Source: Papaver somniferum
Taxonomy: Eukaryota; Streptophyta; Magnoliopsida; Ranunculales; Papaveraceae
Assembly: GCF_003573695.1 (NCBI RefSeq)
Contig: NC_039360.1
Coordinates: forward strand, 125,140,336-125,204,335
Direction of reading: 5' to 3'
DNA: 64,000 nucleotides
Every line of letters begins with the position of its first letter. Positions within the stretch are counted from its first letter, which is position 1. The position numbers and the translations under genes were made by a program. The notes under the pieces were generated by a model. That model did not search any database. It saw only the letters and a program-made list of their open reading frames with translations, and had not been told where the DNA came from. Positions 33,152-63,217 of the stretch are shown here, piece by piece.

Positions 33152-33464
33152 CCAAGTTTAGACAAGTAAGCGAGATATTGAAAACAGTTTGAAATGTTTG
33201 AAAAACCTAATATCTATGTTGTTTTAATCATTTGTTTGCTACTGCTTTAGATTAGCAACATGTTATAAAAAATATATGTAACAGACCGCCTGCTCTGTCG
33301 TTTAAAACTTATAGTTTTATGTACTTTGCGGTTTCACAATATACTTGGTAGCTTTTAATATTTAAGTAAATGAAATTTGAATCTCCCAACTCATCGACCA
33401 ACACCACATACACATTGTGTATTGATTTGGTTTTACAAGGAAAGCTATATTCAGATGTGTGCAT

Positions 33465-35271
33465 TGATGGAATTTCAAAGTTGTTGTAGTAAATAAGATT
33501 CGAACTCTAAGACTTGTGAAGATTAAAATTAAAGATTTAATGAAATAATTAATTAAAGCGAGAGTTATTGGGTCTAGGATTACACCGAATTCATATCATA
33601 AGGTTCAATTATTTATTCTTCAGCAATTATAGCTCAATAAACAAAAATATGGACTCTTATTTTTGCCAAGGCAGATTCTCAAAATATTAGTTATAAATCG
33701 TAAGCATAGGACATCAAACATTTAAGCAAGCATGACCCATCAAATAAAATAATAACTAATTAAATTAAATCATAAATCAATTGAAATAAGTGCAATAGTC
33801 ATAAAAATAATAAAATAAATTCACCCATGTATGAAATTCGGATTCCTCCGTCGACCCAGTGTTGGGGTTTAGCTACTCATGATGTAGACACTCTCAAAAT
33901 ATTTTTTATATAGCTCAAATGGTGTTTACAATGAAAAAAGGAGAAAAATAAGATAAACCGGGAATTTGCAACGCTTAGTGGGTGTTACAAACTCACCGTT
34001 AAAATGTTCAAAGCAGTTGTTACAGAAACTATATTAGGAAACTGTCATAGAAAAACTGTCACTAAGCTGAGAACTGTGACAGTTGTAAAACGACAGACCT
34101 GTAGCGTCGTCTGTGTTCTTCGTCTTCTACCTCTCCGCAGCAGAGAAGTTTTTGCAACTTCTCCTTTTCGTCTGTATCCTCTCCAAACTCTCGATCCCCC
34201 TTATCTGAGTCATGTATCTCTTATTTAAACCCACAACAACATCAAATCTTCGAGTTAATTACCACATATTCTCCATTATACTTTTTTATTCCCCTCGATC
34301 TGTCACGGGAATAACTTCCCTTTTTATTCTCTTTCCATGTCTTCTGGTGGTGTACACGACCCAAACACGTTTGTTACACGACTCTTGGATGAGTTAAACT
34401 CTATTCAGCCATGCGCTACTTCCAAAAAATATCGCAACAGAATACCGAAAATATTTCTTACTCTGTTTTCCTTCAATCCACGTATACAACCCAAGTTTTT
34501 CCGATTCCGATGAACCTACCAGTCCTGTTTTCGTGTAATAGAACCAATCCAACCATTTCCCAACGAGAAAATCTTACCAAATCTTCTCGACTTTAATGAA
34601 GAATATCTTCCCTACACGTACTTTCTTGTTCTCTTCCATGCAAGATTGTAGCTAAAATTAATCGATTCTGTCGACATTATCAACCCTGTTTAGACAAAAC
34701 AAGATGATTCAAACAAATCCCATGAATTTCTCCCATGACTTCTTGCCGAAAATCTTTCCAGAAATCTTCGAGTTATATACACACTGCGCTTTCCTGTTTT
34801 ACGAGATCTTGTTTTTCTTTCCCTTTTTACGACTTCAACTTAACTACCTGCCCTGTTTGGATAAAACATGGTGTTTACAATCCAATCCCATGTCAAAATC
34901 CTAGAAAATCTCTCCCTAACTCAATCCAGAAAAGTACGCATGCACAAATTATTCTCCCGCCAAAACTGTTCTTCCCGTGGAGAAGAAAGGTGCCCCTTAA
35001 CCACTCCTGAGGTGCCGATAGCAGGTGGTTGTAAATAGTAAAGAGGTTGCCCCTTGTCAATTGAGGTACCCCTTAGTAATTCAGGTGCCCCTTATCCAAA
35101 ACGAGAGTCCGAATAACATGTGTCCTCTGGGTGCCTAAATCATCTTTTCGAGCCGAAATTTCCAAAAGAGCTTAATCTTCCAAAAACATCTAAAACAAGT
35201 TTATTAGTGATAAAATGAGTCCCAGCTAATGTATTTATGGGTCAAAATGCGTCACACTTTCGTGCTTATTA
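33465..35271 (-). repeat. 3' LTR of the non-autonomous element
   Basis: It is nearly identical to 36714-38524. The inner end reads TTATTA where the other copy reads TTATCA, a single substitution at the terminus. On the minus strand TTTAAATAAG (about 34225) is a possible weak TATA box. Confidence 0.85.
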
Positions 35272-35321
35272 AATTCCCCCATACTTACATTTTGCTAGTC
35301 CTCGAGCAAAACAAAAGAAGA

Positions 35322-35667
35322 CCCGCTACACAGCTGGTCAAATAATAAGAGAAAGAGACCCGCTAAACAACTGGTCATATCAGTTTTTTTTTTCTTGACC
35401 CGCTCAACAGCTGATCATAATATGCAAAAAAAAAAAAGACCCGCTACACAGCTGGTCATCACCCTAACAATCATAATAATAATAATTTTTTTAGACCCGC
35501 TACACAGCTAGTCATAATAAGAAAAAATACGTAAAAACAGACCCGCTACACAGCTGGTCATAACCCTAACAACAATTTTTTTTTATTATTTTTTTAAAGA
35601 TCCGCTACACAGCTGGTCATAATATAATATACCTACAATCCTACAATACCCGCTCAACAGCTGATCA
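35322..35667 (-). repeat. Array of eight 19-bp CCCGCTACACAGCTGGTCA repeats
   Basis: Copies start at 35322, 35359, 35399, 35440, 35496, 35542, 35601 and 35649, spaced 37-59 bp apart. The spacers are variable A/T-rich stretches, several with homopolymer runs. Two copies (35399 and 35649) share the variant CCCGCTCAACAGCTGATCA. The core CAGCTG is palindromic. The array lies between the short ORF and the polypurine tract of the element. Confidence 0.9.
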
Positions 35668-35968
35668 CGATTTGCAAGAAGATTCCTGAAAAAATAAAGT
35701 AAAAAGTTAACCACTCCCCCACACTTAAACATTACATTGTCCTCAATGTAATTGAGTCATCCAACGCAAAACTTAAGATGGGAAATTCATCAGATGCAAA
35801 AAGTAAACGAAAATATAAAAAATAAAATAAAAATACACCTTCTGGAATATACAAAAAGGATCCCCATAAACTAACAACCTGAAAATTTACAACATTTACA
35901 AATGACAGTTTCACACTTATGTTATAACGATGCGGAGACACTGAAACTATCAAAAACAGAGACTTACC

Positions 35969-36574
35969 TCAAAACCAAGTTTTTACAACACAAGGAAGTG
36001 CGTAAAGAACATAATATGGGGATACTACTGGGACTGTGGAAACATCAATTGGTTCATGCACGATTTCGGGAATAGGCAAATCCTCTGGGTATTTAGATGC
36101 AAAGTACTCCAACAAAATTTTAGAAGCACACAATTCTAACCCTAAATTAGGTAACTTTTGGAAGTTTAGGGGACTAGAAACAACCTCTAAGTTCGGTGAA
36201 TTATCTTGTGGGATAGATTCATCTATGGAATTAGGAAAATCATCTACACAATCATCCACATGGTCATCCACAAATTCTGTCTGGAACAGAGAGTCACTAC
36301 AAGACTGATCATCATCAGCACATAATCTTTGGCATTCCAGAATTCTCAATCTTTGTTTCAAACTAGGTGGTGTGTATTTGTAATACTTCTCATATATCAT
36401 TAGAGGAGATTCTTCACTTACCATTTGTGGAGCAAAAACTCAATATCGTTGCCTATGCTTATATTCACCAAGCGTCATCTCAGATGAGGTTACCTGATAA
36501 TTTGAATTTCTACGCTTATATTCCGCTAGCGTCATCTTAGGTGACGTCTCCTCAGAAAAAGTCATCATCCTCAT
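35969..36574 (-). pseudogene. Short acidic ORF of the non-autonomous element
   Basis: Reading from the ATG at 36574, the protein begins MRMMTFSEETSPKMTLAEYK. It has a single in-frame stop (TGA, 36442-36440) after the 44th codon and then stays open to 35969. The N-terminal part repeats a pattern three times: SPKMTLAEYKRR, SSEMTLGEYKHR and ESPLMIYEKYYK. A later segment is Asp-rich (FVDDHVDDCVDDF). The family is unknown to me and no enzyme motif is seen. Being the only coding capacity of the element, it may have a packaging or regulatory role, but that is a guess. Confidence 0.5.
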
Positions 36575-36690
36575 AAAGTCTCTGAAAAGAAATACAAAAA
36601 GAAACGCATAAAAAGGAAAAAAGAAAATCTAAAATTAAATTAAAAAACTGTACAAAATAAAAATAAACCTAAAAATTAATCTAAAAACAA

Positions 36691-36713
36691 GTCTGCGTCG
36701 GCGGGGCCAAAAA
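36691..36713 (-). other. Primer-binding site of the non-autonomous element
   Basis: Immediately inside the right LTR, the minus strand reads TTTTTGGCCCCGCCGACG and on. This resembles the TTGGCGCC-type primer sites common in plant Ty3/gypsy elements, with one G-to-C difference in the core. I did not assign the tRNA. Confidence 0.55.
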
Positions 36714-38524
36714 TTATGGAATTTCAAAGTTGTTGTAGTAAATAAGATTCGAACTCTAAGACTTGTGAAGATTAAAATTAAAGATTTAATGAAATAATTA
36801 GTTAAAGCGAGAGTTACTGGGTCTAGGATTACACCGAATTCATATCATAAGATTCAATTATTTATTCTTCAGCAATTATAGCTCAATAAACAAAAATATG
36901 GACTCTTATTTTTGCCAAGGTAGATTCTCAAAATATTAGTTATAAATCGTAAGCATGGGACATCAAACATTTAAGCAAGCATGACCCATCAAATAAAATA
37001 ATAACTAATTAAATTAAATCAAATCATAAATCAATTAAAATAAGTGCAATAGTCGTAAAAATAATAAAATAAATTCACCCATGTATGAAATTCAGATTCC
37101 TCCGTCAAGCCAGTGTTGGGGTTTAGCTATTCATGATGTAGACACTCTCAAAATATTTTTTTATATAGCTCAAATGGTGTTTACAATGAAGAAAAGGAGA
37201 AAAATAAGAGAAACCGGGAATTTGCGACGCTTAGTGGCCGTTACAAACTCACCGTTAAAATGTTCAAAGAAGCTGTTACAGAAACTATATTAGGAAAGTC
37301 GTAGAAAAACTGAAACTGCCACTAAGCCGAGAACTGTGACAGTTGTAAAACGACAGACCTGTAGCGTCGTCTGTGTTCTTCGTCTTCTACCTCTTTGCAG
37401 CAACAGAGAAGTTTCTGCAACTTCTCCTCATCGTCTGTATCCTCTCCCAACTCTCGATCCCCCTTCTCTGAGTCATGTAGCTCTTATTTAAACCCACAAC
37501 AACATCAAATCTTTGAGTTAATTACCACATATTCTCCATTATACTTTTTTATTCTCCTCGGTCTGTCACGGGAATAACTTCCCTTTTTATTCTCTTTCCA
37601 TGTCTTTTGGTGGTGTACACGACCCAAACACGTTTGTTACATGACTCTTGGATGAGTTAAACTCTATTCAGCCACGCGCTACTTCCAAAAAATACCGCAA
37701 CAGAATACCGAAAATATTTCTTACTCTGTTTTCCTTCAATCCACGTATACAACCCAAGTTTTTCCGATTCTGATGAACCTACCAATCTTGTTTTCGTGTA
37801 GTAGAAATAATCCAACCATTTCCCAACGAGAAAATCTTACGAAATCTTCTCGACTTTAATGAAGAATATCTTCCCTACACGTACTTTCTTGTTCTCTTCC
37901 ATGCAAGATTGTAGCTAAAATTAATCGATTCTGTCGAAATTATCAAACATGTCTAGACAAAACAAGATGATTCAAACAAATCCCATGAATTCTTGCTGAA
38001 AATATTTTCAGAAATCTTCGAGTTATATCACACACTGCACTTTCCTGTTTTACGAGATCTTGTTTTTCTTTCCCTTGTTTACGACTTCAACTTAACTACT
38101 AGCCATATTTGGATAAAACAGGGTATTTACAATCCAATGCCATGTCAAAATCCTAGAAAATCTCTCCCTAACTCAATCCAGAAAAGTACGCATGCACAGA
38201 TTATTCTCCCGCCAAAACTGTTCTTCCCGTGGAGAAGAAAGTTGCCCCTTAACCACTGCTGAGGTGCCGATAGCAGGTGGTTGTAAATAATAAAGAGGTT
38301 GGCCCTTGTCAATTGAGGCACCCCTTAGTAATTGAGGTGCCCCTTATCCAAAACCGAGAGTCCTAATAACATGTGTCCTCCGGGTGCCTAAACATCTTTT
38401 CGAGCCGAAATTTCCAAAAGAGCTTAATCTTCCAAAAACATCTAAACACAAGTTTATTAGTAATAAAATGAGTCCCAGCTAATGTATTTATGGGTGAAAA
38501 TGCGTCGCACTTTCGTGCTTATCA
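36714..38524 (-). repeat. 5' LTR of the non-autonomous element
   Basis: It matches 33465-35271 along its length. The outer end (TTATCA at 38519-38524) is intact and the inner end has TTATGG instead of TGATGG. Differences are scattered substitutions and short indels. Confidence 0.85.
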
Positions 38525-47791: not shown

Positions 47792-48265
47792 CGTTCTGTA
47801 GATGGTAGATTTTCGACAATGAATAAAATCATAAACTCATAATTATACGAAGCTCTGATCCAGCAATCAGACGTGAGTATTGAGACACGGGTCTCTCATC
47901 AAATTCTCAACGGAGAGTACTTTCTCTCAGAGTACATGTAGATATGTAGTCTCACGACTGGACAACGGCATATCTCATGAATACTGAACACTTTCAGTGA
48001 TTATTTATATATAGTATCACGATATGGACGGCTCCTAGACAGCTTGCTCTGCTAGTATAGAGCGATAACGTCTTTAGGAACAAAAAACGAGTTTACCCTG
48101 ACTATATAAAAGATATGACTTACCGACAAGCTCATATCGGGATAATTAATGCTCCTAGACAGCTTGCTCTGATAGTATAGATCCACAAAGTTAATTATTC
48201 CTAATTAAGATTAATTCTGCCGTGACATTCACTACTGAATTCCCAGAATAATCTATTATTGCTCA

Positions 48266-48600
48266 TATTCCATGGTCGAATCCACGACTGGTCCCATGGA
48301 ATGGCAATAACAATTGCTCCTATTCCATGGTCGAATCCACGACTGGTCCCATGGAATGGCAATAAACAATTATTCTGATTCTATGATCGAATCCACGGCT
48401 TGATCTCATAGAATAGCAATAACTATATTATCTCATTACTCCGATTTCATGATCGAATCCACAACTAGTCTCATAAATGGTAATAGATAAATCTTAATTA
48501 CTCCGATTCTATGGTCGAATCTACGATCCCATGGAATGGTAATGCTCACTTTATTATTCTGAATTCGTAGTCGAATCCTCAGCTGATCCTATGAATTAAT
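48266..48600. repeat. Tandem CCATGG hairpin units (about 56-60 bp) in the LTR
   Basis: Each unit contains ATTCCATGG, CGAATCCACGACTGG and CCATGGAAT, the outer words forming a perfect 9-bp stem in the best copies (48266-48301 and 48322-48357). About six or seven units follow with increasing divergence. Equivalent arrays lie at 50520-50830 and 62470-62760. The solo LTR at 29900-33151 lacks a clear array. Confidence 0.8.
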
Positions 48601-49465
48601 AATAAACATCTTATTACTCAGTTTTGTGAATTATTCTCCACGGAATTCCACAATTAGTAATAAATAATCAACAACCGGAGCTACGTCTAAGTAAGCCCCA
48701 ATTCAAATGGTGAAGGTGTATTCAACGACGATACACTAAAAATCACCACAAGAACGAGTATTTCAAAAATATAACGAAACGATGAACCTATGCAAAATAG
48801 AGAAGAAAATAATAAATAATTAAAAATATTGACCAGGGTACTGGGAGCATGGACACACGACCGACCGACTGTCTCGTGGTCAATCCCACGCCAGTTTTAT
48901 ATTTTTAATGCATTTTTATTATTTTCCATGATTTGATGAAAATTCTCTCATTTTATCAAATCTCCTTCGTCTCGAGGAAACTCCTCGGTTTCATGGTACT
49001 TCCATAAATCCATAAAAAATAATATAAAATTAAGGAAAGGAGTGTGGGGCGTGACCATTGGCCAACCGGCCCCACACCCCACGGTTCCTTATTATTTTAT
49101 TATTATTATTTCTCTAATTTCATGAAAAAACTCCTTGATTTCATGGTATTTTTGCACAAATCATCAAATAATAATAAAATAAAATAAATTATGAAAACTT
49201 GTGGGACCGGGCCTTGGCCGGCCGGCCATGCCCTAGCCGGCCCCACACGCCCCTTTGTGTTATTATATTTATTATTAGTTTTCCTTGAATTCATCAAATT
49301 CCTTGATTTCATGGTATTTCTCTCAAATTAGGAAAAATTCCCTCAATTCATCAAAAATACATAAAAATTAGGGAAACTCGTGGGACCGGCCCAAGCCGTC
49401 CGACCATGCCTTCCACGGTCCCACACGCCCTTGTTTTTATTATTTTAATATTTTAATAAAATTAT

Positions 49466-51292
49466 TAAGGTTGGAATCTGGAATGATGATCCTTGGATTC
49501 AGAAACCCTAATTTGATCAATTGATGATCAATTCATGGTTCGTCAGGATTTCAACCACGGGACGAAGGAGTTTTCATGAGTTCAAGGAACCAAAAACTAT
49601 TAAAATAATAAAAACAAGGGCGTGTGGGACCGTGGAAGGCATGGCCTACCGACTTGGGACGGTCCCACTAGATTCCCTAATTTTTATGTATTTTTTATGT
49701 ATTTTTGATGAATTGAGGGAATTTTTCCTAATTTGAGAGAAATACCATGAAATCAAGGAATTTGATGAATTCAAGGAAAACTAATAATAAAATAATAACA
49801 CAAAGGGGCGTGTGGGACCGGCTAGGGCATGGACGGCCGTCCAAGGCCCGGTCCCACAAGTTTTCATAATTTATTTTATTTTATTATTATTTGATGATTT
49901 GTGCAAAAATACCATGAAATAAAGGAGTTTTTTCATGAAATTAGAGAAATAATAATAATAATAAAATAATAAGGAACCGTGGGGTGTGGGGCCGGTTGGG
50001 ACCAAGGCATGGCCGGTTGGCCAATGGTCACGCCCCACACTCCTTTCCTTAATTTTATATTATTTTTTATGGATTTATGGAAGTACCATGAAACCGAGGA
50101 GTTTCCTCGAGACGAAGGAGATTTGATAAAATGAGAGAATTTTCATCAAATCATGGAAAATAATAAAAATGCATTAAAAATATAAAACTGGCGTGGGATT
50201 GACCATGACACGGTCGGTCGGTCGTGTGTCCGTGCTCCCAACACCCTGGTCAATATTTTTAATTATTTATTATTTTCTCCTCTATTTTGCATAGGTTCAT
50301 CGTTTCGTTGTATTTTTGAAATACTCGTTAGTGCAGTGACTGTTAGTGTATCGTCGTTGAATACACCTTTACCATTTGAATCAGGGCTTACTTAGAGGTA
50401 GCTCAGACGCCCAGTTGTTGATTATTTATTACTAATTGTGGAACTCGGTGGAGAATAATTCACAAAACTGAGTAATAAGATGTTTATTATTAATTCATAA
50501 GATCAGCTGAGGATTCGACTACGAATTCAGAATAATAAAGTGAGCATTACCATTCCATGGGATCGTAGATTCGATCATAGAATCGGAGTAATTAATATTT
50601 ATCTATTACCATTTATGAGACCAGTTGTGGATTCGATCATGAAATCGGAGTAATGAGATAATATAGTTATTGCTATTCTATGAGATCAAGCCGTGGATTC
50701 GATCATAGAATCAGAACAATTGTTTATTGCCATTCCATGGGACCAGTCATGGATTCGACCATGGAATAGGAGCAATTGTTATTGCCATTCCATGGGACCA
50801 GTTGTGGATTCGACCATGGAATAGGAGAAATAATATATTATTCTGGGAATTCAGTAGTGAATGTCACGGCAGAATTAATCTTAATTAGGAATAATTAACT
50901 TTGTGGCTCTATACTAGCAGAGCAAGCTGTCTAGGAGCATTAATTATCCCGATATGAGCTTGTCGTTAAGTCATATCCTTTATATAGTTAGGGTAAACTT
51001 GTTGTTTGTTCCTGAAGACGTTATCGCTCTATACTAGCAGAGCAAGCTGTCTAGGAGCCGTCCATCTCGTAATGCTATATAGAAATAATCACTGAAAGTA
51101 TTCAGTATTCATGAGATATGCCGTTGTCCAGTCGTGAGACTACATATCTACATGTACTCTGAGAGAAAGTACTCTCCGTTGAGAATTCGATGAGAGACCC
51201 GTGTCTCGATACTCACGTCTGATTGCTGAATCATAGCTTCGTATAATTATGATTTTATGAATTTATCCTTTGTCGAAAATCCACCATCTACA
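49466..51292 (-). mobile_element. Truncated 3' LTR of the PMD-carrying gypsy element
   Basis: Read on the minus strand it begins TGTAGATGGTGGATTTTCG right after a polypurine tract and stops at about 49466. The second half of the LTR, with promoter and terminal CATCTACA, is missing. Compared with the 5' LTR, about 700 bp (60794-61490 in that copy) is also deleted at about 49572. Confidence 0.75.
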
Positions 51293-51312
51293 TTAAGTCC
51301 CCTTCTTACTGA
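51293..51312 (-). other. Polypurine tract of the PMD-carrying element
   Basis: On the minus strand, CAGTAAGAAGGGGACTTAA directly precedes the LTR start at 51292, the expected position for plus-strand priming. From here to the TATA box at 51596 there is no other feature. Confidence 0.6.
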
Positions 51313-51595
51313 GGAAAGCTGTGTTCCTCGGTCAGCATTAAATGGTGATTTTCCGGCCATAAATAATAATACCAGTAATTGAACTTAGTCGCAAGTTGAG
51401 ACATTACCGGATTTAGAGAGCATGAGCAAACCACGACTTTATGAAGGTTTCAATGTCATGATTGGAGCGTCGTTTGATGAGCATAAATTTGTGTTGAACC
51501 GCTGGTTTGGACGACGAGTCCGTGGTCGGTTAGGATTCGTGGGTCGGGCCCAATAAGGAAATCCTTAGAAAATTAGGTTTTGGAAATAAAATTGA

Positions 51596-51747
51596 TATAA
51601 AAGGGATTAATCCTCTTTTTTTTTCCCCACGACCAGCTCTCCACCATCTAAGCACCTTCACGCCAGCAGCAGGAGAAGACCGCCGGGATCCAGCGCCGCC
51701 GCTGCCAGTCGCCGTCCGTTGCCGCCGGCCAAATTCCGGCCGACCAG
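51596..51747 (+). promoter_or_regulatory. TATA box and GC-rich first leader exon of the PMD gene
   Basis: TATAAAAG at 51596-51603 is followed by a C-rich leader with GCCGCC repeats, ending at a donor CGACCAG|GTACGTG (51747/51748). Acceptor-like TTTTTTGCAG near 52560-52569 and TTTGCAG just before the ATG indicate one or two further untranslated exons. The promoter points opposite to the LTR retroelement that contains it. Confidence 0.55.
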
Positions 51748-52746
51748 GTACGTGTATTTTTTTATTTTTTTTGTTTGATGTTGATGTTTATGATCCTCAT
51801 GAGTTTTTCATGTTTTGATCATGATGAAATTATATACATGTGTGTATATTAGTGTGAGTTTTATGAAAAAACCCTCGTTTTTGAAAACGTACGTTCGTTC
51901 GATCATTAGTTTTGAAAACTAACTATAATCCCTGATTTAGGAGAGATTTTTTTTTTTAAATATGAACCTAGGTCCAGTGATAAAACTTAGTGTATGAGCT
52001 TTCATGTATACGAAGGTTTCATCATAAAAGAAGTGAACTTTCATGAAATTGGAATAATCCTTCGCTTTAAAGACAAATAATGATGACACGAAGGAAAATA
52101 TGTATGATGAACTTGTATCCAGTGATAAAATTTTGCCTATGAGCTTTCATGTAAATACAAAACTTTATCATATGTATGAGATGTGAGCTTTCACAATATT
52201 TTTGAAATAAACCTTCGTTTTAAAGACAAATAACGACGATATGAAGGAAAAATAATTTTAATTTTTTATATATATATGAAGCCGTGACATATATTGTGTA
52301 AAATATGATGATATATTTCATTTGCATGAATCAGATAAAATTCTTGAGAATTTATGTAAGCAATGTTGCATTAATTGTTGTTTTTTCGAAAAATCAGAAA
52401 CGTGGGTTTTGAGGAACCTTCGAAGATAGACAATATATTTATGATGAAATATTTTATTGTTGTAAACTTCATAGGTCATTTGTATGAATGTTCACATTAT
52501 CAAAATCGTGTCCGTGATTTTATGAAAAGTCAGTTTCGAAATTAATAAAGTTTCGTTCGTTTTTTGCAGTTTTCGAAGAGACGAACGATTTTGAGGCGTT
52601 ACCTCTACCGTTAATATCACTATTGTTAGTGGAAGTACAAAAGGTAAGAGTCAAGAGTTACCATTTTTTGCCGTATTTCCTTGATTCGTGTCTGGACAGC
52701 ATACTGAAGTAGAATGTAATGTGGACTTTGCAGTTGTTTTAGCAAA

Positions 52747-55425
52747 ATGACCAATTCCTCAGCCGACGATACTTCAAGGGACGAATCGCATTCTGATGAT
52801 GACATCTCCAGGGATGATGCACGCATGGACGAGACCTCCATTGGTGAAGAAGAGGAGGATGCCACTGGCGTGAAGAACATTCCTAATATAGACTACGCAT
52901 TCTTTGAAGGGGATCCAAAAGGAGATGAAGCATATCTCAAGTCCCCAATATATAGTCTTCTGATCAACCCTAGGACTGTGACTCAGAAGAAATTGGTGAC
53001 CCCGAAGATGGTAATACGGCTTTGTCTCGAACGAGGTATTTTCCTTGCATCGACCATAGAGTTTAAGCTTTATCGACGCCCTTTGGAAAAAATTTCTGGA
53101 TGGGCAAGGCATATGTTGGGTTTCCCTCATGTCAGGGCTATGCTCAACCAGGCGCAAGTGACGAGAGCTATTCAAGCTTCTGGAGACTTGTCTATTAATC
53201 ATGATGTGAAAAGTATCGTGGCTTTGCTGGACCATTGGTGTGTTCCCACTCATACCTTCATATGTAGATGGGGAGAATATACTGTTACCTTAGAAGATGT
53301 GGCTGCTTTGATGCATCTCCCGATTACAGGTAATTTCTCTGGAGGTCTTTCGGATGAGGAAAAAGTGGTTTTTGACACTCTGACAGCTGCGATAAAAGAA
53401 GTGAACAAGGCGTCTGGTAGTAAAGGTTGTTATGCCCATTGGTTGACACGTTGGTGGCCAAGAGATGAAGTTTCTGATAGTCCCATCACCGGTATGTTAC
53501 CTATTTCCGCTTTCTTATACTTATGGTTATCCAGAGACATATTTGAAGACAGTGGACATTTGTTGAAGCCTTTCGTAATCCCTTTTGCTATTAAGATGGC
53601 TCAAGGTGAGCAACTCCCAATAGGTAGCTTATTCTTGGGTTCCTTGTATTCTAACTTAGACTCCTTGGTGTTAGATTCCAGCGTGTGGAATGGCTTCATG
53701 AAGATTGAGTGTTATGTTAACACGATATTTCTTCAAGCTTTGATGTGGGAGCACTTCAAGAATTATGCGCCTATCCCACGTAACATCCTGCAAGGACCAA
53801 ATACTGATGCCCGTCACATCTTCGCCGAGAAAGATAATGCCCGAATCATGCGTTGGTCTACAAAGCAGCCTCGGTCTAAAGCACGCCTCATTGATGTGTT
53901 GGATGAAGAATCGGAGTTCGACTTTCGTCCGTGGGTGTCGATTCCTGATTATGTTTCTCAACCAACGACTTTCAATACTGGAGAGAGCACGACTATGAAA
54001 TCTGGTGCTAACCCGAATGATGGTGAGAGATCCTTCATGTTGAGCTGTACTCCTGGTCACTTGTTATCCGTTATGTATGGAGAGTGGGCAGTAGAAGAAT
54101 ACAACATTGATAGGGCGGCTCGACAAATGGGTATGGATCAATGTGTTCCAACTACCCGGAGAAGGAAACCATCAGTTTGTAAGCTTGCGTCTCGTTTAGA
54201 TCACACTCACGTGGAAGGGAGTAGTTACTGGTTTCCTGGTTCTGATAGACTTGCATATGTAACCCCAGGTTATATAGAATTATGGCATCAACAATTTGAG
54301 AGGTTGCATGAATTCGTGACAGTTAGTCAACTTCCAGTGAAGATTCCTCCGTCTGCTGAGATGATCTCTGGTCGACCAAGACTGAAGTACCTTTCTGGTG
54401 ATAAACGAAAATTATCTCCAGGATGTTCTCAAGTAAGATTCTCCACATGTCTTATATGAAACCACAGTAACTGTATTCTGATCATGTTATTGAATTCTTT
54501 ACAGGACGGTCGTAGCGTAAGACCTCGAATCCATGCAGATTTTTCAGATATTGGAGAAGTCGTTCACGGCGGAGAAGGAAGGAACAAAAGTTATAAGCTG
54601 TTACCTAATACCATGAAGTCCCCAGTTCGTTCTTTGGTGAGTTCCCAATATTTCTCACTGTGAATTTCATTGCTATTAACATTAGAATCATGAAGCCAAT
54701 GTTATTAATTTTATTGCAGAATTTTACTCCATCAAGTCTTGAAGGTATTCAATTTTCTGCTACTGAACAAGCAATCGCTGATTTGAGTAACGAAGAAACT
54801 GTAAGTATTTCTTCACATGTTCAAATGTGGTGCTTCATAGATGAAAATATTGATTATAAAGGACGTGTACAGGAGGATGTCGTCATGGAGATGGAGAATT
54901 CTGGAACTCAATCATCCTCTGGGAATGGAGGTAATTCCCAAGATTCGGAGTCGGATGAAAGTGTGATGTTCCTCTTGTCGTTGATGTGGACAACTCCAAC
55001 CCCTTGGACACTTTGGAGACTCCTCAAGTAAGTATATATCCTGTATATTCTTCATATAAGTATAAAAGTGCTGACTTGTGAATGAATGAATGAGAACCCA
55101 TGTGAATATATGAAAACTTAGTCGAATTTCGTCGTCAGAAAATTCAGAACCCAGCTTTTTAATAGAAACGCTGTAGAATCTTCGTCCGGAGTCGGATGAG
55201 AATTCAGAAAGACTTGGCCTTAACGTGAAATGGCTTCGTAAGCAAATAAAGATTATCAAGGATTCATGTGAGAAGAACATACCATTTCCCAATGATGCTG
55301 TGAAGGAGAAGGAGGACAAGATTGCCAAGTTGACCGAGGAGTTGAACAAGGAGAGGGCGGCTTACCAAATCTTGAAGGATGCTGATGAGCGAAAGCCTTT
55401 TCTTGCTGATCTCTTGAACTTCTGA
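52747..55425 (+). pseudogene. Plant mobile domain (PMD, MAIN/MAIL-like) gene inside a retrotransposon
   Basis: Coding exons are 52747-54432, 54505-54636, 54720-54800, 54873-55027 and 55177-55425, with GT-AG introns all in phase 0. The N-terminus is acidic/serine-rich (residues 1-45). The PMD follows from about residue 140: LLDHWCVPTHTFICRWGEYT, LEDVAALMHLPITG, HWLTRWWPRDE and ALMWEHFKNYAPIPRN. The C-terminal exon is coiled-coil (EKEDKIAKLTEELNKERAAY). PMD proteins of the MAIN/MAIL1 type act in the nucleus in silencing and gene control; related PMDs are known from plant transposons. One single-base loss near 54964 breaks the fourth exon, otherwise the frame is open. It lies antisense to gag-protease. 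Confidence 0.82.
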
Positions 55426-55685
55426 GAGATGTGAGGTTTATACTTGGGTTTTGATATTTAGATGGTTTTGGATTGACTGATGGTTAAGGATTTTCTTGTA
55501 GATTTGATAGATATTTTCTTTTACGAAACATGAACTGAATTTTGATAAATTGCTGAATTCAAATACTGATTGCAAGTATTGCAATGTTTTGGAGGAATTG
55601 AAATACAAATGAAAGAAAATCCTAAATGTTAAATCCCAACGCCATGAGTGCTTCAAACGCCCAATACCTTAAATGTCCAATAATT
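55426..55685. other. Gap between the PMD gene and the gag-pro region
   Basis: About 260 bp of AT-rich sequence separates the two tail-to-tail reading frames. It would hold the PMD 3' end; no motif is clear. Confidence 0.4.
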
Positions 55686-57119
55686 TCAGATAAACGCCTT
55701 GAGCCAATTTTCGTGAATTACTGGTAGGGTTCTGCCATCTGTGTTGGTCAATTTGTAGTATCCTCCGGCCACGAACTCAGCAACCATGAATGGTCCTTCC
55801 CAATTGGAGTTCCTTGTAGAATGAAGACCGCGCTGAACTGCTTTGAGAACCAGGTCCCCTTCATTAAACTTGTTAGGCTTGGTCGATCGTGCCTTGAATA
55901 TCTTTCGCTGATTCAAAATTCCCTGTTTGATGGAATTCCAAGATTGTGGCCCATATGGACACTCGCGCGAAAGAGAGTATCCAGCATAATGTTGATCATG
56001 CTTAGTCAAGTCTTTAGCAATAAACCTCTCCATGAAGTGACCGATTTGAAGAAGTTCTGAACCCAACCATTGAGTGTAATATTGCTGAGGTGAAGTTACC
56101 CACTCGTAGCTTTTGATGACTGCTAAATTTTTCATGGGGAGAAGTCCTTGGACCATAGTAGCGTATTTGAATATTGGTAATATTGGAGCATGAGTAGGAA
56201 TAAGACTTGTCTGAGATCGAAACCTTCTGACAAAGGTGTGCGGATTTTCTCCAAGTTCCTGCGTAAATCCCATCAGAGTTGTTGCTTCTTCCTGATGGTC
56301 AAACGGTGTTGCGTCCTCTGCTTCGTCTTCCGACTCGGAATCCTCGTCGATGACAGGATGTGTTGAAGGCATCGTTATCCTTCCGGCATGAATCCAAGTT
56401 CTTCCAAGGACTATGTTGTACCCAGGGTCTTCCCGGATTATGAAAAACTTGGCCTCATTGCAGATCAATCTCTCCGTAACTTTGAGAGTGATGAAGTCGT
56501 CTGCGTCTCTGGAGATTCCTTCTTGGTCCCTAATTGCGATGGGAGCATGGGTGGCTTCCTGTCGAGTAATACCGACAGCTCTGAGAGTTTTCAAAGGGAT
56601 GATGTTGACAGCGGTACCAACATCGACGAACGCTCTCTTGAACTCATTTCCTTTAATGTGCACTGTGGTGAGAAGTCCCCAGTCATACATTTCTTTGTCG
56701 GTGGCTGACGGTTCGTTGGTGGTTTCTTGGATCAACAGACGTTTTCCAGACACGATGTGGTTCAGCGCAGCAAACATGTCTTTCCTTTGAGCTTTCGAAA
56801 GATACAACAACTCGCAGACATGTTCGATCAGAGATTGGACCGTTTCCTTGACAGGAGGTTCAGAGATGGTAAAAGTTCTGACTGGGAAGGGGTTTTTGTG
56901 CACGCCCTCAGTCCCCAGGTTGAGCTCTCCTGATTCGACATTTTCTTTGAATATGCGCTTCAAAATTTTGCAATCACTCGTGGGATGGATGACGTATCTA
57001 TGGAAGAGATAATACCGAGGATTTTCCATGGCCTCTTCAGTTGGTTCCTTCTTGACATAAGGCAATTTGATTGCGCCGTCTTGAATCCAGGCATCGAGTA
57101 GTTCATTAACTTCTTCCAT
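55686..57119 (-). pseudogene. Gypsy protease region fused to the integrase C-terminal tail
   Basis: The 477-codon frame begins within Gag-like sequence (YLFHRYVIHPTSDCKILKRI, a degenerate knuckle). It continues into a retropepsin-like domain at about residues 150-255: TTVHIKGNEF, FVDVGTAVNIIPLKTL and YNIVLGRTWIH. The active site reads D-V-G-T instead of D-S/T-G. The last 80 residues (FKARSTKPNKFNEGDLVLK, NWEGPFMVAEF, GGYYKLTNTDG) are the C-terminal domain of a gypsy integrase. Reverse transcriptase, RNase H and the integrase core, normally about 1000 residues, are absent, yet the frame stays open across the junction. The element therefore could not replicate itself. The missing DNA is not found elsewhere in the window. 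Confidence 0.75.
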
Positions 57120-57543
57120 TGAACAGGGAAAATCAGGTGCTTCTGGATCTTTCGTATGCTAAGGAGGGATTTTCGAATTCTCCTTCTTGTGTGTCTTTGA
57201 AGGGGTGGAGGAAGTCTGCTTATGTTGTGGTTCTTCTTTTCGCTTACTCCCTTCCGCGATAACATTTTTTGAAGGTTGAAGGTTGTACTGCTTGTTGATC
57301 AAACGCCTGCTTCCTCGAGTGTCTTTTGAATCTTCAGTTTTGTAGACTTTGCTCTTTCCAAAAGAGCGGGTGCAGTGGTTTCCGACCTCTTCGCAGCTTC
57401 GTGAAGCTCTAAGAAAGTCTGGAATCGAAGGTTTTATAGCAAGGCCCTGTAGACCGGGAGTATGCCATTGATGCACAAGTCCACCAGTTGTTGCTCCGTG
57501 ACGTTTGGGTCATGACAATCCAGGGCTTGGACTCTGAATCTTT
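57120..57543 (-). pseudogene. Broken Gag linker region
   Basis: Between the two larger frames the protein continues in shifted registers. One register reads VSENPNDYVKRFRVQALDC, typical of Gag, and ends in a stop near 57440. Another gives a basic, Ser/Lys-rich stretch (57159-57476). At least two frameshifts and a stop separate gag from protease. Confidence 0.55.
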
Positions 57544-58416
57544 TCACATAATCATTGGGATTTTCACTGACCCTCTGAAACATTCTTCCAAGTCGGAGAG
57601 GGTGACTTGTTCTGACACGAAGAAATATTTCCTGTAGAATGCGTTAACCATTTCTCCCCAATTGTTGATAGTCTCTGGTGCAATGTTGTTATACCAGGTG
57701 TATGCTCTGCCTTTCAGAGATTTTGAGAATTCCTTGAGACGAACAACATGATTATGTTCATGTTCTCCCAGGGCTTCGAGAAAACGAGAGACATGTTCCC
57801 GAGCATTTCCAGTTCCATCATATAAGGTGAAGGTTGGAGAAACGTAACCTTTGGGGAGTGGAATCCTCTGCGTAGCGGAAGGATAAGGAGGTTGATGACG
57901 ATGGTCATGCGATGTTTTGTCTTTTCCACGGTTCTCCAAGAGGTGCTCCAGATCCTCGCGAGTGATGAAATTCAATGATCCCTTCGCTGATGAGTTGTCT
58001 GCGGCAGTTTTGTGGACTTCGTCGTCTTCTACTGTATGGATTGGAATTACTTCAGGGTCGTCGTCTAAGGATTTCTCCTTCTCCTTTCCCTTCTCTTGAG
58101 TCTTCTCTGACATCTTGTCAGTAAGAGTTTTGAGATAATTACACAGCTCATTCTGTATAACAGCCATGTTAGTCTGGTTCTTTGCAATAGTCTCCTGCGC
58201 TTTGATAAGATCAGCAATGGTATGCGGTGGATCTCCTATGACTTCTTCAGGGTGTCGTCCGGACAGTGGATGACCTTCGGCGTGAGGAGGAGTAGTGTCG
58301 CCACCATCAGTGTTGGAGGTCGGAATTGTCTCCGGGATATTCTGATTGTTATTGTTGCTAGTGCTAGCACGGTTTGTGTTAGGATTTGTAACTGAACCTG
58401 ACCTGATATCAACCAT
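57544..58416 (-). pseudogene. Gypsy Gag N-terminal and central part
   Basis: The frame of 290 codons starts MVDIRSGSVTNPNTNRAST 58 bp inside the LTR end. It has an Asn/Thr-rich N-terminus, a helical middle (IADLIKAQETIAKNQTNMAV) and the Retrotrans_gag core: FTLYDGTGNAREHVSRFLEA, FSKSLKGRAYTWYNN, INNWGEMVNAFYRKYF. Gag packages the element RNA into virus-like particles. The frame is shifted by one base near 57590, after SDLEECF, so full-length Gag cannot be made. Confidence 0.8.
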
Positions 58417-58452
58417 CTTGTGAAATTGTTAGATTGCAACCGAGAGAATGAT

Positions 58453-58473
58453 CTCCCACTGTGGTCGCCAATC
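58453..58473 (-). other. Primer-binding site of the PMD-carrying element
   Basis: On the minus strand the LTR end ATCTACA is followed by GAT and TGGCGACCACAGTGGGAG. TGG three bases after the LTR is the normal form of a primer-binding site. I did not assign the tRNA. Confidence 0.6.
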
Positions 58474-61400
58474 TGTAGATAGGGAAAAACGATTTGCTGG
58501 TTTTTAAGGAATTGAGGAGACGACCGTATGGAGGAGACTCCTCGAACCGAGCGAAATTTTAAACCTCACACAGATGCACCGCTGCAAAGGGGGTGCTTTA
58601 GATTCGAGAGATCAATCTGTAGTACTCTGGCCTAAATCAAGACAATGACCGTTCCAGAGTAAATTCGGTCACAAGAGAGGATGGGTTGATCTGTAGGAGG
58701 GAAGCTGGGAATGTGTGGAATCAATGGTAATCAAAGATTGTGGGTGTGTGAATTCCGAATACAATAAGCTTTGAGTGATTGAAATTTCTCAATTGAGAGT
58801 AGTTGCTCAATTGATGAGTTGATGATCTCGTGTTGTCGATGAGACGTGAGATTGATGATACTGATGATGCTGATGATTCAATCATGATTCAGAGACTTAT
58901 TTATATTGCTGGAATTTTAGACAACGTGATTCCATGAAGTGTGACAGTTGATGGAATCAAGGAGTGGGGAAGTGGAGATCGTGTTTGAAACCAGTTGCTC
59001 AACGTGTGAAGACTTGGTCGATTTTCCACCCCCTACCTCGTGAATTCCTTCAACTAATTGCACGACTTGCTCACATTCCATCGTGTGTTTGAACACACGT
59101 GTCGTAGACCGCCAGAACAAAACCCTAAGTGATATCCCCCCAAGTGACACGATTGACGTCTCGTGGTTTGTTAGTCAATTGATGACTTTTTGGTTTGATG
59201 GGACGATGATTCCATGTAGTCGTTGAGTTGAACATGATGTTCTGAAACTCATGAATTGAACATGTCATGAGACAGAGGTATAGTTCTTACGATGAAGTGA
59301 TCAAGTATTGCTCATTCGATGGATCATTGAATATTGATTGTTGAACCAATATTGAGCAAATATTCCTCATCTGAGAAAGTTCTGCTCATGTGATGAATTG
59401 TTGAATATTTGATCATCTGAGCATGTGTTGCTCACCCTCCTCCGTCGTCCTAGTGTTGGGTTTAGCTCATCATGATAAAAACACGCTCAAAATATTTATT
59501 TATTGCTCAAATGGTGTTTACAATGAAGAGAAGAAGAGAAAATGGTGTAAACAACTAATGTGCGACCCACAAGAAGCGTCACAAAAGAACGATAAAAGAG
59601 AAGTGCTATTGTCGCTGTGGTTCTAAGACCCACACCTACGACCCACGCTTATGAGTCTGTTTCACTGTTGATAAACGACTGTCCCTGCGAGTCTGTTCTT
59701 CGTGTTCTTGGTGTTCTTCATCATCAGCAGGAGCAGAAACAGTGTTTCATCAACTCTTGATTTCTCGCTCCTGAGCTCTCCTATCGACCCCAAACTCTCG
59801 ACACCCTTCCTTGTACCTGGAGAAACTTATTTATACTCAACAGGGCCCTCGAATCTCTCCATATCTTCAAAATATTTCCCATGACTCGGCAGTAAAGAAA
59901 AAATATTCTCGGATTGTTTTCTTTCCTTTCTTACCTACTTACGCTGTCAACCAGTGTTTACACGCTCCAAACATGCTCCCAGATCATCAAGGAATGTGTC
60001 AAGACGTTGCAAACGCATGCCATCTTCCATACAACATCGACACAATTCCGAGTATCTTTTCTCAACCACGTATTCCCTGATTTCTTTAAACCGAGAATCA
60101 AGCCCAACTGGATCGATTCCAACAACCAAAATAGCTTCCCATATCCATATCACGTCTACCCAACAAGAATCAGAGGTTTAGTCTACCTCTAACCCCTCCA
60201 AATATCAGGTTGAAATCTGCCAGGGAAGAAAAAAATTTTCCCGCCAAAACTGAAATTTGAATTTGAGAAGAAGGACACCCCTTATCTAGTGGTCGCCCCT
60301 TATCCGTTGTTGGAGTCCGAATAACACATGTCCCTTTGGGTGTCTTTAGTAATTTTTCTGGGGTGTTTCCAACATTTTTTCTGGGTTCCTCCGGTGCATT
60401 TCTGGGGTGCTTCCGGTGCATTTCTGCGGTGCCTTTAGTACTTTGTCTTGGGGTGTAAAACACTACTTTTCGAGCCCATTTCGTCGCAAGGACTTATTTC
60501 TCTAAAATTTCCTACAAAGACATAAAATAACACAAAAAATACAAAATCGAGCACTAACAATACATACAAATGAGACATATTAGACACATAAATGCGTCTA
60601 TCACGTACCAAAAATATTAATTAGAAAACTGCTCGTTGAACCGAGCATAATTAATAAAATTAATGACCATGAGGCCGTCGTAAAATTATTAAGGTTGGAA
60701 TATGGAATGATGATCCTTGGATTCAGAAACCCTAATTTGATCAATTGATGATCAATTCATAGTTCGTCAGAATTTCAACCACGGGACGAAGGAGGGAGCG
60801 ACTACATGGACCGTGGGTCAACCATGTAGTGTCCATATGCTCACGTGAGCAAATACAAAGAAATCATGAAGAGTTGACGATTTGTTGGTGAAAGAATGAT
60901 CAAATGCTGATTTAATCATTTATTCGAAATGCTCGTCTGAGCTTTAAGTGAGAAAACCTAATTAATTATGACGAGGCAAGGGACCGACCATGAAGTCATG
61001 AAACCGGCCCTGGGTTGTCACGTGACCACCTGACGATCACTTCATGAAAATACAAAGTGTTTGGAAGAGTTTTGGACCTAATACGAGCAATTGTGCAAAT
61101 TAGGTCAAAACTGTGAAAATTGATGGGACCGGCTTCCGTGAGCCAAAGAGCCAATCTTGGTCAGTCAAGATAGCGTGCTCGTGTCCCCAAGGCGTCTGCG
61201 TCTCAATCTGAGAATTTTGATATTTTCTGGCGTGCAATTGAGCATCCATTCGAGAAAATATGCTAAAATTAGGGTTTCGACGAAACTGAGGAAAACACCA
61301 TGAGATGATGAAAAATAATTATAAAATAAGGAATGAGGAGGCGTGGGACCGCCGTGGTCGAGGCATGGTCGTCCGGTCATGACCACGGTCCCGTGGTGCC

Positions 61401-63217
61401 TTTTTCTTAATTTTATAATATTTTGATGATTTTATGAAAAATTCATGAATTTTGAGAAATTTGATGAATTTAGGGAGTTTCCACGAATTGAAGGAGTTTC
61501 TTGAGTTCAAGGAAGCAAAAAATATTAAAATAATAAAAACAAGGGCTTGTGGGACCGTAGAAGGCATGGCCGGCCGGCTTGGGCTCGGTCCCACGAGTTT
61601 CCCTAATTTTTATGTATTTTTTATGTATTTTTGATGAATTGAGGGAATTTTTCCTAATTTGAGAGAAATACCATGAAATCAAGGAATTTGATGAATTCAA
61701 GTAAAACTAATAATAAAATAATAAAACAAAGGGGCGTGTGGGACCGGCTAGGGCATGGCCGGCCGGCCAAGGCCCGGTCGCACAAGTTTTTATAATTTAT
61801 TTTATTTTATTATTATTTGATGATTTGTGCAAAAATACCATGAAATCAAGGAGTTTTTTCATGAAATTAGAGAAATAATAATACTAATAATAAAATAATA
61901 AGGAACCGTGGGGTGTGGGGCCGGTTGGGACCAACGGCCGGTTGGCCAATGGTCACGCCCCACACTCCTTTCCTTAATTTTATACTATTTTTTATGGATT
62001 TATTGAAGTACCATGAAACCGAGGAGTTTCCTCGAGACGAAGGAGATTTGATAAAATGAGAGAATTTTCATCAAATCATGGAAAATAATAAAAATGCATT
62101 AAAAATATAAAACTGGCGTGGGATTGACCACGACACGGTCGGTCGGTCGTGTGTCCGTGCTCCCAACACCCTGGTCAATATTTTTAATTATTTATTATTT
62201 TCTCCTCTATTTTGTATAGGTTCATCGTTTTGTTGTATTTTTGAAATACTCGTTTGTGCGGTGACTTTTAAAGTATCGTCGTTGAATACACCTTCACCAT
62301 TTGAATCGGGGCTTACTTAGAGGTAGCTCAGACGCCCAGTTGTTGATTATTTATTACTAATTGTGGAATTCGGTGGAGAATAATTAACAAAACTGAGTAA
62401 TAAGATGTTTATTATTAATTCATAAGATCAGCTGAGGATTCGACTTCGAATTCAGAATAATAAAGTGAGCATTACCATTCCATGGGATCGTAGATTCGAC
62501 CATAGAATCAGACTAATTAAGATTTATCTATTACCATTTATGAGACCAGTTGTGGATTCGATCATGAAATCGGAGTAATGAGATAATATAGTTATTGTTA
62601 TTCTATGAGATCAAGCCGTTGATTCGATCATAGAATCAGAATAATTGTTTATTTCCATTCAATGGGACCAGTCGTGGATTCGACCATGGAATAGGAGCAA
62701 TTGTTATTGCCATTCCATGGGACCAGTCGTGGATTCGACCATGGAATATGAGCAATAATAGATTATTCTGGGAGTTCAGTAGTGAATGTCACGGCAGAAT
62801 TAATCTTAATTAGGAATAATTAACTTTGTGGCTCTATACTAGCAGACCAAGTTGTCTAGGAGCATTAATTATCCCGATATGAGCTTGTCGGTAAGTCATA
62901 TCCTTTATATAGTCAGGGTAAACTTGTTGTTTGAAACTGAAGACGTTATCGCTCTATACTAGCAGAGCAAGCTGTCTAGGAGCCGTCCATCTCGTAATGC
63001 TATATGGAAATAATCACTGAAAGTATTCAGTATTCATGAGATATGCCGTTGTCCAGTCGTGAGACTACATATCTACATGTACTCTGAGAGAAAGTACTCT
63101 CCGTTGAGAATTCGATGAGAGACCCGTGTCTCGATACTCATGTCTGATTGCTGAATCAGAGCTTCGTATAATTATGAGTTTACGAATTTAGCCTTTGTCG
63201 AAAATCCACCATCTACA
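58474..63217 (-). mobile_element. 5' LTR of the PMD-carrying gypsy element, with a nested LTR
   Basis: The outer end (minus start) is TGTAGATGGTGG at 63217 and the inner end is CCCTATCTACA at 58474. Its order matches the solo LTR 29900-33151: CTAGACAGCTTGCTCTG words, CCATGG array (62470-62760), GGCCGG modules (61340-62170), a TATA-bearing block (ATATAAATAAG near 58905), and the TTTAGGCCAGAGTACTACAG leader. Without the nested insertion (about 1.17 kb) it is about 3.6 kb, against 3.25 kb for the solo LTR. Confidence 0.85.
59434..60603 (-). mobile_element. Nested, 3'-truncated LTR related to the 33465-38524 family
   Basis: The minus-strand start TGATAGACGCATTTATGTG is at 60603, and the segment ends at about 59434. 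Its lower part matches 33840-34200 (CCTCCGTCG-CC-AGTGTTGGG, CTCAAATGGTGTTTACAATG). About 375 bp of LTR terminus is missing on that side and no target duplication can be found, consistent with deletion. It interrupts the gypsy LTR between GGTACGTG and GGTGAGCAAC. Confidence 0.65.

What the first reader, a model, noticed from the sequence alone, without database searches (positions are those of the whole stretch)
51293..58473. Gypsy-type retrotransposon carrying an intron-containing PMD gene in antisense
Seen: between an intact LTR/primer site (58474) and a polypurine tract/LTR (51293), a plus-strand unit with TATA box, spliced leader and five phase-0 exons encodes a plant mobile domain protein, while gag-protease reads on the minus strand. 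Known: PMD proteins of the MAIN/MAIL1 group act in silencing and gene control, and PMDs occur in some plant transposons. Inferred: antisense orientation would preserve the introns during retrotransposition, because they are not spliceable in the element RNA, so a whole host-type gene with its own promoter could be carried. A silencing-pathway gene on a retroelement is a plausible anti-silencing device.
Basis: partly seen in the sequence, partly recalled or inferred. Interest (0 to 1): 0.88.

Follow-up and report, generated by a model that had tools for sequence, protein, structure and literature searches.

The report
Retrotransposon carrying a backward, intron-bearing gene
A very abundant retrotransposon family in what is likely the opium poppy genome carries, on the strand opposite to its own genes, a plant mobile domain gene that still has its introns and whose main exon bears the mark of selection for protein function, although the copies examined show no reverse transcriptase of their own; the protein would likely help the element against host silencing.

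Summary
Window 51293-58473 is the internal part of a Ty3/Gypsy-type LTR element on the minus strand with a plant mobile domain (PMD, PF10536, E 1.6e-40) gene on the plus strand. In the host genome (2.7 Gb; nearest proteins Papaver somniferum) 15 of 20 PMD loci that I fetched have this antisense layout; of 20 unselected LTR/primer-site junctions (of 8,538), 10 carry PMD-gene sequence, antisense in 10 of 10. Introns persist: 1,341 unspliced exon 3/intron 3 boundaries against 0 spliced junctions genome-wide. No RT, RNase H or integrase core was found in the window or fits in the 15 copies, so the family looks non-autonomous. The PMD main exon shows purifying selection between subtypes (dN/dS 0.09-0.14). 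A 2 kb PMD cassette (52597-54631) exists in two versions (dS 0.91) on one backbone (dS about 0.1), which points to cassette exchange. PMD on Gypsy elements, antisense extra ORFs and the counter-silencing idea are in print; new, as far as searched, are the RT-less carrier, the genome-wide intron retention and the swapped cassette. Function is untested; the window copy itself is broken.

The parts
58474..63217 (-). 5' LTR of the element (reads leftward); holds an extra stretch of about 1.1 kb around 59.4-60.6 kb compared with the older LTR copy at 29900-33151
   Evidence: self-BLAST and ends TGTAG...CTACA
58453..58470 (-). primer binding site TGGCGACCACAGTGGGAG; fits the 3' end of a tRNA-Arg (tRNA recalled, not tested)
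   Evidence: sequence; junction found 8,538 times in the genome
57544..58416 (-). gag ORF, 290 aa; the frame runs on to 574 aa in relative L020, so broken here
55686..57119 (-). ORF of 477 aa: protease-like part (D-V-G motif) joined to an integrase C-terminal-like part (label from resemblance, recalled; no Pfam support), without RT, RNase H or integrase core
   Evidence: dN/dS B-C 0.13
51293..51311 (-). purine-rich tract next to the 3' LTR
   Evidence: sequence, conserved in other copies
49457..51292 (-). 3' LTR, truncated
   Evidence: self-BLAST
47797..49454 (+). inverted LTR piece joined tail to tail to the truncated 3' LTR
51596..51603 (+). TATA box of the PMD gene (predicted promoter)
   Evidence: TATAAAAG in 15 of 16 rows; stretch 51561-51605 is 91% identical even in C-type copies, its upstream neighbour 75%
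51630..52733 (+). predicted 5' UTR with two introns (51748-52569 and 52644-52733)
   Evidence: splice motifs, partly conserved; no RNA data
52747..54432 (+). PMD main coding exon (exon 3)
   Evidence: PF10536 E 1.6e-40; dN/dS 0.09-0.14 between subtypes; frame control
54505..54636 (+). PMD exon 4, 132 nt, phase 0
54720..54800 (+). PMD exon 5, 81 nt, phase 0
54873..55027 (+). PMD exon 6, 155 nt, out of phase in this copy
55198..55425 (+). remnant of the last PMD exon (250-252 codons open in L013, L018 and L016); acceptor and first part lost by a deletion of about 1 kb at 55197/55198
52597..54631 (+). exchangeable PMD cassette: holds 316 of 318 differences fixed between A-type and B-type copies

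Best explanation
The stretch is the internal part of an LTR retrotransposon family with no recognisable reverse transcriptase that carries, antisense to gag, an intron-bearing plant mobile domain gene; the gene is predicted to be expressed from its own promoter after integration, and its protein would likely interfere with host silencing of the family. Shown: layout, high copy number, retained introns, purifying selection between subtypes on the PMD main exon and on the gag and protease-integrase-end ORFs, and a sharp PMD cassette in two versions on one backbone. Inferred: the element RNA is read leftward from the right-hand LTR, the PMD introns lie backwards in it and cannot be spliced, so they return with each new DNA copy; RT, integrase and probably protease come from a helper element in trans; the cassettes were exchanged by template switching between co-packaged RNAs. 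Least certain is the protein's task: competition with, or titration of, host PMD proteins of the MAIN/MAIL1-PP7L silencing complex is my choice at about 0.35, while the layout and dependence on a helper stand at about 0.9.
For: Same antisense layout in 15 of 20 PMD loci; PMD-gene sequence in 10 of 20 unselected junctions, antisense in 10 of 10; 8,538 LTR/primer-site junctions, control 0. Introns: 1,341 unspliced against 0 spliced; 103 of 105 splice boundaries intact. dN/dS of PMD exon 3: A-B 0.14, A-C 0.09, B-C 0.10, 1.3-1.5 in the wrong frames. No RT, RNase H or integrase Pfam hit in 7 window ORFs; the protease-to-integrase-end span is 1291-1401 nt in 15 of 15 copies, leaving no room for them. 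Cassette: 316 of 318 fixed differences in 52597-54631, edges confirmed with 6 A-type and 11 B-type copies. Literature for the function: MAIN/MAIL1 silence TEs (PMC5418596, PMC7156037, passages seen).
Against: No expression or protein data. Within subtypes dN/dS is 0.51 (B), 0.55 (A, one pair) and 0.93 (C, 3 pairs), so recent copies show weak or no constraint; the low between-subtype ratio could in part date from before a cassette joined this backbone. My 20 PMD loci were all chosen from matches without stops in the PMD stretch, which favours intact domains. Related elements lack the PMD gene, so it is not needed by every member. No helper was found. The spliced-junction count covers one intron and A/B-type sequence only. 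The window copy is itself broken.
Confidence: 0.6

Rival explanations
1. The PMD protein serves the element's own cycle, for example nuclear or chromatin targeting of the new copy or matching to its helper, rather than countering host silencing.
For: Constraint on the PMD exon and on the gag and fused ORFs is of similar strength; other antisense extra ORFs are discussed as regulators of transposition (PMC7264820, passages seen).
Against: PMD-less relatives with similar LTR ends exist; host PMD proteins known from the literature act in silencing.
Confidence: 0.3
2. The PMD gene is passive cargo: its low dN/dS reflects selection in earlier carriers or host genes, and A, B and C cassettes were acquired from such donors.
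For: Within-subtype ratios of 0.51-0.93; cassette exchange shows that PMD sequences came from outside this backbone at least once.
Against: Intron positions and promoter are shared by A, B and C types, also outside the cassette; genic PMD loci of this genome are distant (long branches); the B-type within-group ratio is still below 1.
Confidence: 0.25
3. The antisense transcript, not the protein, matters: it pairs with element RNA and regulates it.
For: Such a role is discussed for antisense extra ORFs in PMC7264820 (passages seen).
Against: Codon-level constraint in the one correct frame only and conserved splice sites.
Confidence: 0.08
4. The PMD gene is a single nested insertion into this one copy.
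For: Nothing beyond the single window.
Against: Many copies with the same junctions.
Confidence: 0.01

Closest known systems
Ogre elements (Tat lineage, Ty3/Gypsy) with PMD extra ORFs
   Same: Gypsy element with a PMD extra ORF (57% of Ogre elements in PMC6317226, section 13 seen); long LTR; primer site of tRNA-Arg type (recalled)
   Different: no RT, RNase H or integrase core here, so lineage by RT cannot be tested; orientation and introns of PMD ORFs are not stated in the parts of that paper that I saw
Retand elements with antisense TRP28 ORFs; maize Grande with gene23
   Same: antisense accessory gene between the pol end and the 3' LTR, some with their own promoter (PMC11963269, PMC7264820, passages seen)
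   Different: PMD instead of TRP28; several conserved introns; RT-less carrier; cassette exchange
Gypsy-encoded PMD-A clades of Ikeda et al. 2017
   Same: PMD encoded by Gypsy elements
   Different: clade membership of this PMD not tested, no reference sequences at hand
Non-autonomous Retand sublineages of Papaver (LTR_Stream study, PMC12582370)
   Same: same plant genus; non-autonomous sublineages lacking domains, one with GAG only and a sister with GAG plus PROT (section 7 seen)
   Different: 'mobile domain' has 0 hits in its main text; whether this family is one of its sublineages is unknown

Membership tests
LTR retrotransposon | two LTRs with TG...CA ends, primer site, purine tract, gag | tested here: met
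   left LTR truncated in this copy, other copies read
LTR retrotransposon | target site duplication | tested here: inconclusive
   flanks of 47797 and 63217 differ, but the left end is rearranged
Autonomous Tat/Ogre element | RT, RNase H and integrase | tested here: not met
Tat/Ogre or Retand lineage | place in the RT tree, second RNase H | not testable with these tools
   the domains are absent from the element
Tat/Ogre or Retand lineage | primer site of tRNA-Arg type | tested here: inconclusive
   sequence read; the tRNA is recalled, and no tRNA gene was found in the window
PMD protein family (PF10536) | Pfam score over the curated cut-off | tested here: met
   139.8 bits against 34.9
PMD-A clade (Gypsy-encoded) | place in a PMD tree with reference sequences | not tested
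   references not obtained
MAIN/MAIL1 silencing genes (PMD-C) | groups with MAIN/MAIL1 | tested here: inconclusive
   no MAIN/MAIL1 sequence; distant from three genic PMD loci (long branches)
Antisense extra ORF between pol and 3' LTR | position and orientation | tested here: met
Antisense extra ORF between pol and 3' LTR | transcribed from its own promoter | not testable with these tools
   conserved TATA region only; no RNA data

The most novel reading that the evidence does not exclude
A retrotransposon family without enzymes of its own whose two assets are a gag-type polyprotein and an exchangeable nuclear gene: the PMD gene sits backwards so that its introns survive every RNA passage and protein can be made only from integrated DNA, and whole PMD alleles are swapped between elements like weapons in an arms race with host PMD-based silencing, while the carrying backbone stays the same.
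Probability: 0.3. Interest if true: 0.85.

Novelty: new variant of a known kind. Interest (0 to 1): 0.6.

Why it matters
The host PMD proteins MAIN and MAIL1 silence transposons, and many PMDs are themselves carried by transposons; why elements keep them is open. This family makes the question testable: over a thousand copies, two alternative PMD cassettes on one backbone, PMD-less relatives as natural controls, and a gene that should be expressible only from integrated DNA. The genome-wide 1,341 to 0 ratio of unspliced to spliced boundaries is also an unusually clear natural case of antisense placement letting an RNA-copied element carry introns.

Tried and rejected
Rejected: single nested insertion. 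Rejected: chance ORF (frame control). Not supported: recent capture of a host silencing gene (PMC5418596). Led nowhere: structure prediction of the PMD exon (mean pLDDT 44.8; no fold search made); solved-structure search (one weak hit, E 0.0056, residues 11-81, outside the PMD domain); profile search for MAIN/MAIL1 relatives (24 proteins, those with a named source all Papaver, no MAIN); viral contigs (no relative); tRNA scan of the window (none). No helper with RT was found: three PMD-less elements read in full hold gag-like and protease-like DNA, and their 6 ORFs of 120 aa or more give one Pfam hit, gag. Never obtained because the genome search stayed busy: counts of the purine-tract junction, of the promoter (62, 116, 118, 121) and of the exon 5-6 junction, spliced (120, 123, 126) and unspliced (124).

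Dropped rows and biases: 5 of 20 PMD loci (L009, L010, L011, L015, L028) match none of the element parts by BLASTN and were left out of the dN/dS work. All 20 were my choice among the 149 Pfam matches, all without stops in the matched stretch. L012 was left out of the B group because its divergent block runs further 3', and put back. Codons with stops or gaps were dropped in all dN/dS counts; many copies have frameshifts in gag (at least one in 13 of the 13 other copies counted) and in the fused ORF. The 20 junctions were the first 20 of the 100 listed on contig C1, all exact matches. Only 8 of the 149 Pfam matches and none of the 40 DNA matches came back as loci from the searches themselves.

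Full report
What is there. The window lies in a genome of 2,715,436,153 bases at C3:125140336-125204335. The nearest named proteins are from Papaver somniferum, so the host is likely opium poppy. The element runs leftward on the minus strand: right LTR 58474-63217, primer site 58453-58470, gag 58416-57544, a second ORF 57119-55686, then purine tract and left LTR from 51292. LTR divergence is K = 0.040 over 1,724 sites, about 1.5 My at 1.3e-8 or 2.9 My at 7e-9 per site per year (both rates recalled). The plus strand between holds a PMD gene: TATA box at 51596, two predicted 5'-UTR introns, main exon 52747-54432 (PF10536, 139.8 bits against a cut-off of 34.9), exons 54505-54636, 54720-54800 and 54873-55027, and a remnant of the last exon that ends at 55425.

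This copy is broken. Exon 6 is 155 nt, while 9 of 15 other copies have 159; the other 6 are out of phase too. A span of 400 nt at 55040-55440 measures 1374-1453 nt in 15 of 15 others; comparison with L013 shows that the acceptor of intron 6 and most of the last exon are gone. The left LTR is cut and joined tail to tail to an inverted LTR piece. No target duplication was seen.

The layout is a family trait. I fetched 20 of the 149 PF10536 matches, all without stops in the matched stretch, as pieces of about 10 kb. BLASTN with 14 parts of the element found LTR start, leader, PMD, integrase end and protease-like part in one order, with PMD antisense to the gag-protease side, in 15 of 20; 13 of these 15 also reach primer site and LTR end (L024 and L027 do not within the piece); 5 of 20 match nothing. 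The PMD exon has 4,445 first-look candidates; 40 were scored, all 96-100% identical, the window included. With the whole internal region as query, 33 of 34 rows other than the window begin or end at window base 55197/55198, the site of this copy's deletion; in the two places where both sides were listed, about 0.7 kb lies between them.

A sample not selected for PMD. The joint of LTR end and primer site occurs 8,538 times with up to 3 mismatches (4,234 + 4,304; reversed control 0). For the first 20 of the 100 listed I read 1 kb at 5-6 kb inside the element. Protein comparison finds PMD-gene sequence in 10 of 20 (L033, L034, L036, L037, L040, L042, L043, L044, L045, L049), on the strand opposite to the element in 10 of 10. 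In L036 and L042 only the last exon matches, at 30-35% identity. Four others (L035, L041, L046, L051) share LTR start or leader, but similarity stops at about window 51564, just before the PMD promoter. Three of these four, read in full, have gag and protease-like DNA at 65-85% identity and no PMD match. The remaining 6 of 20 are uninformative.

Introns. Over exons 3-6 in 15 copies, 103 of 105 GT/AG boundaries are intact, including the C-type copies, whose PMD exon is only 71-73% identical to the window's. A pattern for the exon 3-intron 3 boundary of A and B types occurs 1,341 times (661 + 680; up to 2 mismatches; control 0). The pattern for the spliced exon 3-exon 4 junction of the same types occurs 0 times (control 0). 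In element RNA these introns lie backwards, so retention over many rounds is what antisense placement predicts (inference). Only this junction was counted; another was asked for and not answered. Papaver RefSeq protein P0010 (isoform X2) joins exon 3 to exon 4 at the same place and exon 6 to the last exon (my reading of the sequence); I saw the protein, not the reads behind it.

Selection. Nei-Gojobori dN/dS for PMD exon 3 is A-B 0.14, A-C 0.09 and B-C 0.10, with dS 0.9-2.0 (one search agrees). Read one or two bases out of frame, the same alignments give 1.3-1.5 and more than 30 stops. Within subtypes it is 0.51 (B, 55 pairs), 0.55 (A, one pair) and 0.93 (C, 3 pairs), so recent copies show weak or no constraint. 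gag (14 copies) gives B-C 0.19 and the fused protease-integrase-end ORF (16 copies) B-C 0.13. The A, B and C types share the same short protease-to-integrase-end span (1291-1401 nt in 15 of 15), so RT was most simply lost before they parted, and the ORF was still constrained afterwards (inference). A protein of another collection, 86% identical, has the same RT-less join (P0017). The protease-like part reads D-V-G where active retropepsins read D-T-G or D-S-G (recalled), in 14 of 14 copies where the motif could be read, of 16 PMD-bearing copies examined, window included. The element thus likely brings no working enzyme of its own.

Cassette. Against the window, B-type copies are mostly 90-98% identical along the backbone but 75-86% between 52.65 and 54.65 kb; lower values also occur in the repeat-rich LTR part 50.4-50.9 kb and in the leader at 51.65 kb. 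Of 318 differences fixed between two A-type copies (window, L013) and ten B-type copies, 316 lie in 52597-54631. With four further A-type copies at both edges (6 against 11), fixed differences run from 52608 to 54631 and none lies in 52350-52607 or 54632-54955. dS between A and B is 0.91 in the PMD exon, 0.11 in gag and 0.10 in the fused ORF. Of the 100 boundary sites listed, all on C1, I count by eye 30 with the A-type form and 70 with B-like forms, so both are common. L012 carries a longer divergent block, a further breakpoint. Template switching between co-packaged RNAs is the likely route (inference).

Relation to other PMDs. In a tree of 28 rows, A and B group together (96/95), and C lies with other Papaver PMDs of this kind; three candidate genic PMD loci and two other PMD families of the genome are far away, with a long-branch warning. 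MAIN and MAIL1 sequences were not obtained.

Literature. PMD in 57% of Ogre elements (PMC6317226, section 13 and passages). PMD-A clades encoded only by Gypsy elements (PMC5418596, outline and passages). PMD the most frequent extra domain in a survey of plant Gypsy elements (PMC9289625, passages). Antisense extra ORFs, in Grande with its own promoter (PMC7264820 and PMC11963269, passages). TE-borne PMD as a counter-silencing strategy (PMC8616336, passages). MAIN-MAIL1-PP7L complex (PMC7156037, passages). Non-autonomous Retand in Papaver (PMC12582370, passages and section 7). PMC11152179 was seen in passages only and adds nothing. Steinbauerova et al. 2011 is not held. In eight answered searches I saw no description of an intron-bearing antisense PMD gene on an RT-less element, nor of PMD cassette exchange; most subscription papers are not in that library.

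Verdict. Carriage of PMD by Gypsy elements and the anti-silencing idea are known; the RT-less carrier, the genome-wide intron retention and the exchangeable cassette make it a new variant. Function remains inference.

Noticed in passing
window 47797-51292: Two LTR pieces joined tail to tail, a palindrome of about 3.5 kb; the inverted piece differs from both LTRs of the element by K 0.041-0.042.
   Followed up: partly
window 29900-33151: Older LTR copy of the same family, apparently without internal region, flanked by CCGAG and CCAAG; K 0.20 against the end of the 5' LTR.
   Followed up: partly
window 33463-38522: Direct repeats of 1.8 kb, 94% identical, around 1.4 kb: perhaps a small LTR element; a fragment of it is similar to 59438-59543 inside the 5' LTR.
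   Followed up: no
window 16901-18742: Tandem units of 84 bases (and 264 bases), multiples of three, perhaps coding for a coiled coil.
   Followed up: no
L032 and similar places: Another PMD family, with an intron or break inside the PMD domain at about profile position 180 and many similar copies in the genome.
   Followed up: partly
L009, L010, L011, L015, L028: A third PMD family, best Pfam score of the genome search (160 bits), repeated and 85-96% identical over several kb, not on this element backbone.
   Followed up: partly
window 56371-57119 and 13 relatives: Protease-like motif D-V-G in place of the usual D-T/S-G (recalled), conserved over subtypes under purifying selection.
   Followed up: partly
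L053, L054, L055: PMD-less relatives share LTR start, purine tract and the first 270 bases of the leader at 89-95%, but gag and protease-like DNA only at 65-85%: the LTR-to-leader end also seems to move between backbones.
   Followed up: partly
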